From positions 19,597 to 83,596 of the forward strand of contig CAIJYD010000022.1 of NCBI GenBank assembly GCA_903824785.1: a stretch of 64,000 nt of DNA, written 5' to 3'. Origin of the DNA: an uncultured Bacteroidota bacterium (GTDB lineage: Bacteria > Bacteroidota > Bacteroidia > Bacteroidales > VadinHA17). Position 1 is the stretch's first letter. Each line of letters opens with the position of its first letter. The notes under the pieces are model-generated. The model was not told where the DNA came from. It saw only the letters and a list, made by a program, of their open reading frames with translations, and did no database searches. A program made the translations under genes and the position numbers. Positions 30,956 through 37,628 of the stretch are shown in pieces.

Positions 30956-30991
30956 AAAAAGGAAGACAACCTATTCGTTTTCGAAGAAAAA
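30956..30991 (+). promoter_or_regulatory. 36-bp upstream motif, copy A (candidate enhancer/UAS)
   Basis: aaaaaggaagacaacctattcgttttcgaagaaaaa; 32/36 identical to 37507..37542. Confidence 0.6.
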
Positions 30992-31052
30992 TTACCGGAT
31001 AACGGATCTTCTCATTTAGCTAACAGATAGATATACAGTTAAATGTATAGAA

Positions 31053-31068
31053 TGGCACGAACATTGAT
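31053..31068 (+). promoter_or_regulatory. Sigma54-like promoter TGGCACgaacaTTGAT
   Basis: Matches TGGCACG-N4-TTGCW except C->A at the -12 position; 40 bp before the ATG of the REC protein. Confidence 0.5.
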
Positions 31069-31107
31069 TTAGAGTTTCATATTATTCCAAAGCATTATTA
31101 TAGTAAT

Positions 31108-31482
31108 ATGAACGAGAAGATTTTAGTTGTAGATGGCAATGGGGAATTCAGAGAGTTACTGGAATCATTCCTTTCACGAAGATATGAAGTAAAAACAGCC
31201 GGAAACGGAATAGAAGCACTGGGCATGTTAAAGAATGGTTATATGCCCGATTTAATTGTCAGCGACAATATTCTTTCCCCCGTCGATGGTAAATCATTTC
31301 TCCTTCAGGTAAAAGAGGATTCTCGTCTCAGCCATATTCCTGCTATTCTGATAACCAGTATTTACAAATATGTCACCAGAGCAGACCTTATCAGATCAGG
31401 AGCAAACGATTACCTGGTTAAACCCTTTGGTCTTTCAGAGCTGGATTTGCGTATTGAAAATTTATTAAAAGTTACAGCCTGA
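31108..31482 (+). CDS. REC-only response regulator
   Basis: ILVVDGNGEFRELL, DLIVSDNILSPVDGKSF, ITS, KPFG; 124 aa. Confidence 0.88.
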   Translation: MNEKILVVDGNGEFRELLESFLSRRYEVKTAGNGIEALGMLKNGYMPDLIVSDNILSPVDGKSFLLQVKEDSRLSHIPAILITSIYKYVTRADLIRSGANDYLVKPFGLSELDLRIENLLKVTA

Positions 31483-31493
31483 TAAATAGTTAA

Positions 31494-37400: not shown

Positions 37401-37409
37401 AACCTCTGA
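31494..37409 (+). CDS. Large surface adhesin with PATR (autotransporter-associated beta-strand) repeats, putative Ig domain and T9SS-like C-terminal sorting domain
   Basis: 1971 aa with signal peptide; repeats such as LTKTGAGTLTFSATNTYSGTTTINEGILSF; PALPSGLSLNTTTGVISGTPS Ig-type motif; C-terminal ...TEALVYDLTGRILLQTTLHG... Confidence 0.88.
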   Translation: MKKSNMKTFNYRILIILFAAITFTAGTALGQRNITISTSATSGGSWSGGTTGPYTFTPSGDNAIIINTDIQNRLLGSGFAAADVTIVTGTGTQAGNVAFNTALTAAGTVTTQQTFTVNAAGRITVSNAINFTSSASNGSNNTARPGINVTLVAGTSVAVTAAINVSGNVSGSGVNADGGDISVTGPTGIRLTGSLTSAGAGGGASGNYTFNDGAALVTTGGGVNDGQSSASVISGGNITKSGTGTFYLAGANTHTGVTAISAGTLELGSTAALGTTAAGTTVTSGAALDLNGMNYTTTESLTISGTGVGNSGAVFNSSSAVTRFAGLITLGSTSSIVGGAGSINISNTGTITGSGFGLTLGGAAGGTLASIVGTGTGTLTKENAGTWTLSGSNTYTGQTAVNAGTLKAGKISAFSSASDIILANTAGVVLDLNSFNNAIGSLTGGGTTGGNITLGSASLTIGASNSSPVKFAGVISGTGAIIKTGTGTLTLSGVNTYSGLTTVSTGVINIQSSAALGATSAGTVISNGAALQIQGGISVAEAFSLLSPGISSDGGIRSISGNNTITALITLSGSSVISSDAGLLTLNAASGSAVTGTYNLTFAGAGNITVVDLVAISTATLTKTGAGTLTFSATNTYSGTTTINEGILSFSAFGASGFAGSNGNGTLVLGGGTLQYTGVTASSIQNLTLTSGTTSYIDISTSGTTLTLSGANPVSTGSLTKLGAGVLVLSGVSSYTGGTVINAGTLTLGAADKFANSGTITLNGGTLRSGAGAGYSETAGILELNSSSSITLGTGNHTLTFANSSGAEWATGTILTINGWAGLYDGSSSGTSGKIFIGSSVSGLTASQLEQIQFFDGTNNNPAVLLSTGELIADRAAPSGLSYNSTNTFTRLTAISSLSPTVTGTVASYSVTPALPSGLSLNTTTGVISGTPSVAAVTNGYTVTATNAGGSTSFVVTITVNGLAFYSRVSGNWNTNATWSFTTGGSQTGTGIYPVAGDNVIIERGCIVTVNNSSEYCGSLQVGSPGNSSSGRLTFSGSAPSLTVSGAVQLGGYGNSNRTGTVTFTSGSTLDAGRVTIGNAGSTPAAGIIVMTAGGTLRTGSLAVITVTGNSWTPGAGTVILDAFSTLPSTIFTSFYNLTISNSGASPNNTVTLNTATTVTGTLTLSSGILISSSSTLLSVTNTSATAISGGSSTSYISGPVKWNLPSNLASGSSYLFPVGKGGIYMPFTLVNPVTGSGTVPSLVEAFITGTGGTVDATLASLSGSEYWSLVLSGNFTNSSLSVLRQSAITPLDVIAGSTSLTGTYSSLAGTEGTYGVSVSNLIGSSRFFVLASKKQTITTGVISGSPFFAGATVSIPFTITGTFTSGNIFTAKLSDLSGSFTSPVTIGTLTQTTEGTISGTIPAGTAAGTGYKILVEGSNPSITGTESSSFTVLASGIWTGATGTEWNIASNWGSGIPLSTTNVIISSGGNQPVIAAEAVCNNITINSGAKLIISAGATLTVSGTVTNIDGASALELQSDATGTGSLIHNTDNVQATVNRYISGSTEAWHLLSSPVSDQSISGDWLPSGTYGNGTGYDLYMWDESTNCWIYKLNTTATVNWNTAHPSANFVVGRGYLYSVQAANPVKQFTGSLNNGNQSFPLTANSTNLSLTGFNLVGNPYPSSVDWQAATGWSRSSLKTSNGGYDMWIWNPVTNNYGVINSAGGTGTNGVSRYIAPTQGFFVRAESNGNLDLSNSLRVQNGAGLWLKKGNASEGNMINISVNSAAGVGSDEVQLILGSKQNEPGAMKLFSPVLTAPSLYMSVQEENFTVRYFTDTVDNPVVPVMFKPGKDGEFTLKCTFDIYQYETLILEDRQLHKFLDLKSENEYKFNSSKTDVQSRFILHFTAVKNSEPIEQPASVYTSENQLIVDLTAISAETEALVYDLTGRILLQTTLHGETYNSLNLNSKTQILIVCLRNQMGVVRRKLMWVNL
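32211..33800 (+). repeat. Five PATR protein repeats inside the adhesin
   Basis: KSGTGTFYLAGANTHTG, KENAGTWTLSGSNTYTG, KTGTGTLTLSGVNTYSG, KTGAGTLTFSATNTYSG, KLGAGVLVLSGVSSYTG. Confidence 0.85.
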
Positions 37410-37506
37410 TAGATTCTTAATAATATACTCTTCAGTTCAGGTTGCAGGTTTTCTTATCCGGCATCATTCTCATTTATATTAAGTCAACTACTTCCGGATA
37501 GCATAT

Positions 37507-37542
37507 AAAAATGAAGACAAACTATTCATTTTCGAAGATAAA
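37507..37542 (+). promoter_or_regulatory. 36-bp upstream motif, copy B (candidate enhancer/UAS)
   Basis: aaaaatgaagacaaactattcattttcgaagataaa; 32/36 identical to 30956..30991. Confidence 0.6.
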
Positions 37543-37612
37543 ACTTTCGTTCAGATCTACCGGCTCAAACAAATATTTACTAAAGCGTTGTAAATCAGGT
37601 AGATATAAATTT

Positions 37613-37628
37613 TGGCACACAAATTGAT
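37613..37628 (+). promoter_or_regulatory. Sigma54-like promoter TGGCACacaaaTTGAT
   Basis: Same TGGCAC-N5-TTGAT architecture as 31053..31068; upstream of DUF4402 gene. Confidence 0.5.

What the first reader, a model, noticed from the sequence alone, without database searches (positions are those of the whole stretch)
30956..37628. Shared 36-bp motif plus sigma54-like promoter before both surface-structure transcription units
Seen: 30956..30991 and 37507..37542 agree at 32/36 positions, and each contains GAAGAnAA twice, 22 nt apart. They are followed 97 and 106 bp downstream by TGGCACgaacaTTGAT (31053) and TGGCACacaaaTTGAT (37613). Established: sigma54 consensus is TGGCACG-N4-TTGCW and NtrC-type activators bind about 100 bp upstream. 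An NtrC-type gene sits at 20079..21479. Inference: the local activator co-controls the adhesin and the fimbriae; the 9-bp spacing difference is close to one helical turn. The -12 element is TTGA, not TTGC, in both.
Basis: partly seen in the sequence, partly recalled or inferred. Interest (0 to 1): 0.82.

Follow-up and report, generated by a model that had tools for sequence, protein, structure and literature searches.

The report
Sigma-54 enhancer regulon for surface structures
Two surface-structure operons in this bacterium, and a sensory operon elsewhere in its genome, carry the same on-switch DNA (a 16-letter palindrome about 65-75 letters ahead of a sigma-54 promoter), very probably read by the regulator gene next door, so the cell seems to build its sticky appendages and its sensing array under one command.

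Summary
30956-30991 and 37507-37542 agree at 32/36 positions, and TGGCACN5TTGAT follows each. The GAAGA repeats are 21 nt apart, not 22. The conserved core is a palindrome, TATTCR-N4-YGAAGA; the outer GAAGA copy is not conserved in relatives. A whole-genome scan for the 31-mer (up to 3 mismatches) found only one more copy. It lies on another contig, exactly 65 bp (as in copy A) before a canonical sigma-54 promoter, TGGCACgtctaTTGCT, heading a CheW-CheR-CheW-MCP-CheA-CheB operon. rpoN is present. Three comparable palindrome-plus-TGGCAC sites (gaps 64-66 bp) occur in two other Bacteroidota genomes, both chosen because they encode a 20079-type activator with the same recognition helix. In one, the orthologous chemosensory operon sits in the activator's own locus; in the other, the site is just behind the activator gene and heads an exopolysaccharide operon. 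Most likely the 20079 NtrC-type protein binds the palindrome and activates sigma-54 RNA polymerase at the adhesin, fimbrial and chemosensory operons. The 37.7-43.2 kb operon looks like a chaperone-usher pilus. The kind of system is known; this enhancer site and regulon appear undescribed. Not shown: binding, transcription starts, and the effect of the imperfect -12 (TTGA).

The parts
30972..30987 (+). Palindromic enhancer site A, TATTCGTTTTCGAAGA (proposed binding site of the 20079 activator)
30962..30966 (+). Outer GAAGA copy of site A, 21 nt upstream of the inner one; kept in the three sites of this genome, not in relatives
31053..31068 (+). Sigma-54-type promoter A: TGGCAC gaaca TTGAT; 65 bp after the palindrome; -12 is TTGA instead of TTGC
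31108..31482 (+). Single-domain response regulator (REC only), first gene of unit A
   Evidence: 49% identical to the response regulator in the L097 operon
31494..37409 (+). 1971-aa surface protein with passenger-associated-transport repeats (PATR / autotransporter-type beta repeats); C-terminus resembles a type IX secretion sorting tail by eye only (no Pfam match)
37523..37538 (+). Palindromic enhancer site B, TATTCATTTTCGAAGA
37513..37517 (+). Outer GAAGA copy of site B
37613..37628 (+). Sigma-54-type promoter B: TGGCAC acaaa TTGAT; 74 bp after the palindrome (A's spacing + 9)
37707..38252 (+). DUF4402 protein with signal peptide; candidate pilus subunit
38348..39397 (+). Fimbrial-chaperone-like protein (true start probably about 70 codons further in, as in its 275-aa homologues)
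39718..40239 (+). Second DUF4402 protein; candidate pilus subunit
40239..43241 (+). Usher-like outer-membrane protein with C-terminal SPOR domain (low-confidence model)
20079..21479 (+). NtrC-type activator (REC D57, Walker A at 182, GSFTGA loop at 229, Fis-type HTH NKAEAARLLNIEWNALYRRIQK): proposed regulator of the sites
13990..18483 (+). Multi-PAS/GAF hybrid histidine kinase, likely input to the activator (kept upstream of the activator in G090 and L096)
18476..18958 (+). Response regulator, REC only (kept in the cluster)
18970..20064 (+). REC-histidine kinase protein directly upstream of the activator (kept in the cluster)

Best explanation
The shared motif is the upstream activating (enhancer) site of the NtrC-type response regulator encoded at 20079-21479. 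When the kinases encoded beside it (13990-20064) phosphorylate its receiver domain, its dimers bind the palindrome TATTCR-N4-YGAAGA through the Fis-type HTH and assemble into a hexamer. By DNA looping they then remodel sigma-54 RNA polymerase waiting at TGGCAC-N5-TTG(A/C)T 65-74 bp downstream. This switches on together the response-regulator/adhesin unit (31108-37409), the chaperone-usher-like pilus operon (37707-43241) and, on another contig, a CheW-CheR-CheW-MCP-CheA-CheB operon. Shown by sequence: the sites, promoters, spacing, rpoN, activator architecture, and a third target and comparable sites in two other genomes. Inferred: that this particular activator binds the site, phosphorylation by the neighbouring kinases, and that transcription starts about 12 bp after the -12 element.
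For: rpoN is present. A third copy, found by the upstream motif alone, has the canonical TGGCACgtctaTTGCT at exactly copy A's 65-bp gap; chance of that element at a given position is about 1.5e-7. It heads a chemosensory operon. Of 33 palindrome-like sites (<=2 mismatches) in 6 genomes, only A, B, C and the one in G090 are followed by TGGCACN5TTG, at 65, 74, 65 and 66 bp. Two further sites in L097's genome lie at 64 bp. With the relaxed palindrome and TGGCAC, the distinct background matches listed include none with a TTT centre and none with a 64-66 bp gap, while the five true sites matching that pattern all have the TTT centre and gaps of 64, 65, 65, 66 and 74 bp. Activator link: 1 of 117 relatives has a close orthologue, and that genome has the site in the same locus, together with the orthologous che operon (47-60% identity). 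The recognition helix is identical or nearly so in the orthologues. In L097 the site starts within 30 bp of the activator's stop codon. The activator has REC, Walker A/B, GSFTGA and HTH.
Against: The -12 element departs from TTGC at A and B (TTGA), in G090 (TTGG) and in L097's genome (TAGT, CTGT); only TGGCAC and the G are constant. Five other sigma-54 activators are encoded in the genome and none was excluded by experiment. A fourth genome with an orthologue (L096, 64%) shows no qualifying site. The two other genomes with sites were chosen because they have the activator, so co-occurrence is not a blind test; the L097 site fits only the loosest pattern. In G090 the che operon has no site directly in front; the site heads a response-regulator gene several kb upstream. 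No expression or binding data; all genomes are draft assemblies.
Confidence: 0.82

Rival explanations
1. The sites are a sigma-54 enhancer module, but a different activator of the genome (for example the C52 or C37 protein) binds them, and the proximity of 20079 is coincidental.
For: Six sigma-54 activators are encoded in the genome; the third site is on another contig, and A and B are 9.5-16 kb from the 20079 gene.
Against: 20079-like paralogues at the 42-44% level, closest to C52, and C78-like activators occur in relatives that lack the sites. The 20079 type is the one shared by all three site-bearing genomes, and there the site lies in or next to its locus. The recognition helix is conserved in that type and different in the paralogues examined.
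Confidence: 0.1
2. The 36-mers are a recently duplicated piece of DNA, with no regulatory role, and the TGGCAC elements are chance.
For: A and B lie 6.5 kb apart and are 89% identical over 36 bp.
Against: Flanks and spacers do not match, as a duplication of the whole promoter would require. The third copy has diverged elsewhere yet keeps the palindrome and the exact promoter spacing. Relatives keep palindrome plus TGGCAC at 64-66 bp.
Confidence: 0.02
3. The GAAGA direct repeat, two helical turns apart, is the real operator of another regulator (for example a LytTR type or a repressor), and transcription is by the housekeeping sigma factor.
For: The outer GAAGA is kept in all three sites of this genome at exactly 21 nt.
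Against: The outer copy is missing in the other genomes while the palindrome stays. No Bacteroidota-type TTTG-N-TAnnTTTG promoter was found in the six regions and sigma-70-like matches are at chance level. TGGCAC is invariant at fixed spacing.
Confidence: 0.05

Closest known systems
Sigma-54 / enhancer-binding-protein regulons reconstructed from UAS motifs (Clostridiales, PMC6615313)
   Same: Fis-type HTH activators with inverted-repeat UAS upstream of TGGC...TTGC promoters; 35% of those activators control more than one operon; targets usually next to the activator gene.
   Different: Different phylum, different UAS sequence (TATTC-N6-GAAGA rather than TGT-N10-12-ACA), shorter and nearly fixed distance (64-74 bp against mostly 100-250 bp), surface and sensory targets instead of metabolism.
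SypG of Vibrio fischeri (PMC10162802)
   Same: REC-AAA-HTH response regulator fed by several kinases that turns on sigma-54 promoters of an exopolysaccharide/aggregation locus; the L097 relative also appears to drive an exopolysaccharide operon.
   Different: Different UAS (TTCTCANNNTGMDWN in SypG), different phylum; here adhesin, pilus and chemosensory targets. Orthology was not tested.
Sigma-54 regulon of Flavobacterium psychrophilum (PMC9723704)
   Same: Bacteroidota sigma-54 promoters with -24/-12 elements drive the SprB surface-adhesin/gliding operon, confirmed with reporters.
   Different: The passages read name no activator or UAS for that operon; different targets.
Sigma-54 as controller of the bacterial exterior (Francke et al. 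2011, PMC3162934)
   Same: General rule that sigma-54 contexts are enriched in exopolysaccharide, LPS, lipoprotein and flagellar functions.
   Different: A statistical trend, not this regulon; the word search found no mention of Bacteroidetes in the text.

Membership tests
Sigma-54-dependent promoter | TGGCAC element at -24 | tested here: met
   Exact in all six sites
Sigma-54-dependent promoter | TTGC(A/T) at -12 with N5 spacing | tested here: inconclusive
   TTGCT at C; TTGAT at A and B; TTGG in G090; TAGT/CTGT in L097's genome. Spacing met in all
Sigma-54-dependent promoter | rpoN in the genome | tested here: met
   Sigma54_DBD, 173 bits, contig C40
Sigma-54-dependent promoter | Transcription start about 12 bp after the -12 element; rpoN dependence | not testable with these tools
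   No RNA data
NtrC-type sigma-54 activator (20079) | REC receiver with phosphorylatable Asp | tested here: met
   PF00072; D57
NtrC-type sigma-54 activator (20079) | AAA+ domain with Walker A/B and GAFTGA loop | tested here: met
   GESGTGKE at 182, GGTLFFDE at 247, GSFTGA at 229 (a one-residue variant of GAFTGA, by own knowledge tolerated)
NtrC-type sigma-54 activator (20079) | Fis-type HTH | tested here: met
   PF02954, 42.6 bits
NtrC-type sigma-54 activator (20079) | Member of a named NCBIfam equivalog (NtrC, AtoC, ZraR ...) | tested here: not met
   Best scores far below the curated cut-offs, e.g. AtoC 361 against 714; an unnamed subgroup
Enhancer (UAS) of that activator | Inverted repeat upstream of the promoter at conserved distance | tested here: met
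   Palindrome; gaps 64, 64, 65, 65, 66, 74 bp
Enhancer (UAS) of that activator | Binding by the 20079 protein | not testable with these tools
   Only co-occurrence and locus linkage
Chaperone-usher pilus (operon B) | Two-domain immunoglobulin-like chaperone | tested here: inconclusive
   Model of 38348 (pLDDT 66): most of the best PDB folds are CfaA, CsuC, FimC, PapD, Caf1M; no Pfam chaperone match
Chaperone-usher pilus (operon B) | Outer-membrane usher | tested here: inconclusive
   Low-confidence model of 40239 (pLDDT 60): the 14 best PDB folds are FimD/PapC ushers, TM-scores low; no Pfam usher match

The most novel reading that the evidence does not exclude
A so far undescribed clade of NtrC-type activators in Bacteroidota (184 homologues of its DNA-binding end were found at E<=1e-3), with its own palindromic enhancer TMTTCN6GAAKA and a relaxed -12 element, is a surface-life master switch that jointly turns on a giant adhesin, a chaperone-usher-like pilus, exopolysaccharide synthesis and a chemosensory array.
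Probability: 0.5. Interest if true: 0.68.

Novelty: new member of a known kind. Interest (0 to 1): 0.5.

Why it matters
Sigma-54 regulons in Bacteroidota are little mapped. This one comes with its sites, its probable activator and several target types, so it gives an immediately testable rule (palindrome 64-66 or 74 bp before TGGCAC). It also ties adhesin, pilus, exopolysaccharide and chemosensory genes to one two-component input, and points to a pilus operon whose chaperone and usher resemble those of Pseudomonadota.

Tried and rejected
GAAGA direct repeat as the conserved operator: rejected, absent in G090 and L097. Strict composite pattern across the family: only chance-like hits outside this genome. 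Two background-level candidates looked at closely, L170 and L181, overlap coding sequence and were not counted. Housekeeping promoters of the Bacteroidota type (TTTG / TAnnTTTG): none found; sigma-70 type at chance level. Rfam: no family in the window. A first composite search used a wrong spacer (N18) and found nothing. Sequence searches of the PDB with the pilus proteins gave only SPOR-domain or unrelated hits. No paper in the library mentions DUF4402.

Full report
Observation. The GAAGA copies start 21, not 22, nt apart. The best 36-mer pair in 40 dinucleotide shuffles of the window's intergenic DNA agreed at 28 positions. The two upstream regions match well only in the 36-mer, the TGGCACN5TTGAT element and scattered A/T, so this is not a duplicated promoter.

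Genome-wide test. rpoN is present. The 31-mer with up to three mismatches occurs three times in the 4.69-Mb assembly and its reversed control never: A, B and a copy C on contig C93. C was found by the upstream motif alone. It is followed after exactly 65 bp, as in A, by TGGCACgtctaTTGCT, which has the full canonical -12. From the base composition of that locus the element is expected at a given position with probability about 1.5e-7. C heads CheW-CheR(TPR)-CheW-MCP-CheA-CheB.

Core of the site. The relative G090, picked because it is the only one of 117 family members with a close orthologue of 20079 (65% identity, 659 bits; next best 44%, 387 bits), carries TATTCGTTTACGAAGA 66 bp before TGGCACaatcaTTGGC in the same locus. 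There the outer GAAGA is absent, so the conserved core is the palindrome. A search for the palindrome with two mismatches in six genomes gave 33 sites; only A, B, C and the G090 site have TGGCACN5TTG downstream. A third genome (L097; G119) has two more: TACTCGTTTTCGAAGT, 64 bp before TGGCAC, starting within 30 bp of the end of the activator gene and heading a surface lipoprotein (DUF4114/DUF4842), a response regulator 49% identical to window 31108 and an exopolysaccharide set (sugar transferase, OEP, GNVR, Wzx-like, Wzy-like); and TCTTCATTTTAGAAGA, 64 bp before TGGCAC, before a glycosyltransferase-like gene. The -12 element there is TAGT and CTGT, so only TGGCAC and the G of the -12 are constant.

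Control. With the relaxed pattern TNTTCN6GAANA-N55..84-TGGCACN7G in 80 genomes, background matches occur in about a third of genomes. In the fetched loci none of the distinct background matches has a TTT centre or a gap of 64-66 bp, whereas all five matching true sites have the TTT centre and gaps of 64, 65, 65, 66 and 74. Caveats: genomes G090 and G119 were chosen for having the activator, the L097 site fits only the loosest pattern, and a fourth genome with an orthologue (L096 / G118) shows no qualifying site.

Which activator. The genome has six clear sigma-54 activators. 20079 has a receiver domain (D57), Walker A and B, GSFTGA and a Fis-type HTH. It belongs to no named NCBIfam group. Its recognition helix (NKAEAARLLNIEWNALYRRIQK) is identical or nearly so in G090, L096 and L097 and differs in the genome's other activators that could be aligned. 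The same helix recurs in the homologues inspected. The kinase/response-regulator cluster 13990-20064 is kept upstream of the activator in G090 and L096. In G090 the che operon orthologous to that behind copy C (47-60% identity) lies in the activator's locus. These linkages make 20079 the most likely regulator. Binding itself is inferred.

What is controlled. Unit A: a REC-only protein and a 1971-aa repeat protein with PATR repeats. Unit B: two DUF4402 proteins, a protein whose model is closest mainly to fimbrial chaperones, and one whose low-confidence model is closest to FimD/PapC ushers, with a SPOR domain. I read this as a chaperone-usher-like pilus operon. Homologues are numerous (3984 and 976 hits), and those with a name given by a source are mostly from Bacteroidota. 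A contig of 16,532 bases (source lgn) is the longest contig listed for a 20079-like activator (P0273), a chaperone-like (P0028) and an usher-like (P0122) protein, which suggests linkage in another genome; I could not fetch that contig.

Comparison. The layout (inverted-repeat UAS, looping distance, -24/-12 promoter, response-regulator activator) is that of ordinary sigma-54 regulons, such as those reconstructed in Clostridiales (PMC6615313). The biological theme fits the proposal that sigma-54 controls the cell exterior (PMC3162934), the sigma-54 promoter of the SprB adhesin operon in F. psychrophilum (PMC9723704) and SypG in V. fischeri (PMC10162802). What appears new is this UAS, its activator group and the set of targets. 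No description was found in the held library, which is not a complete search.

Verdict. Observation confirmed; interpretation supported and extended. A well-supported predicted regulon of a known kind, worth a bench test.

Noticed in passing
window 37707-43241: The fimbrial operon looks like a chaperone-usher pilus in Bacteroidota: DUF4402 subunits, a CfaA/CsuC/FimC/PapD-like chaperone fold and a FimD/PapC-like usher fold, with no Pfam chaperone or usher match and no paper on DUF4402 in the library.
   Followed up: partly
L009:10251-18077 (contig C93): Chemosensory operon CheW-CheR-CheW-MCP-CheA-CheB under the third site; what it senses or moves is unknown.
   Followed up: partly
window 21602-22666 and 22808-23263 (- strand): An actin-like (ALP/MreB-like) protein gene next to a bactofilin gene, directly beside the activator gene: a possible cytoskeletal pair.
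   Followed up: no
window 24178-30021 (- strand): A second large sensory set: 1249-aa multi-PAS kinase, REC/LuxR-type regulator and REC-kinase, between the activator and the adhesin.
   Followed up: no
window 30675-30775 and 38461-38562: Inverted repeat of about 100 bp, 71% identical, in front of unit A and inside unit B; function unknown.
   Followed up: no
window 62867-62988 and 63869-63986: Direct repeat, 89% identical over about 120 bp.
   Followed up: no
window 38348-39397: The listed start is probably too early: homologues are about 275 aa and begin about 70 codons further in.
   Followed up: partly
L169:1374-1631 (genome of L097): A glycosyltransferase-like gene is preceded by the palindrome and TGGCAC at 64 bp, so the regulon there may hold a second polysaccharide operon.
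   Followed up: partly
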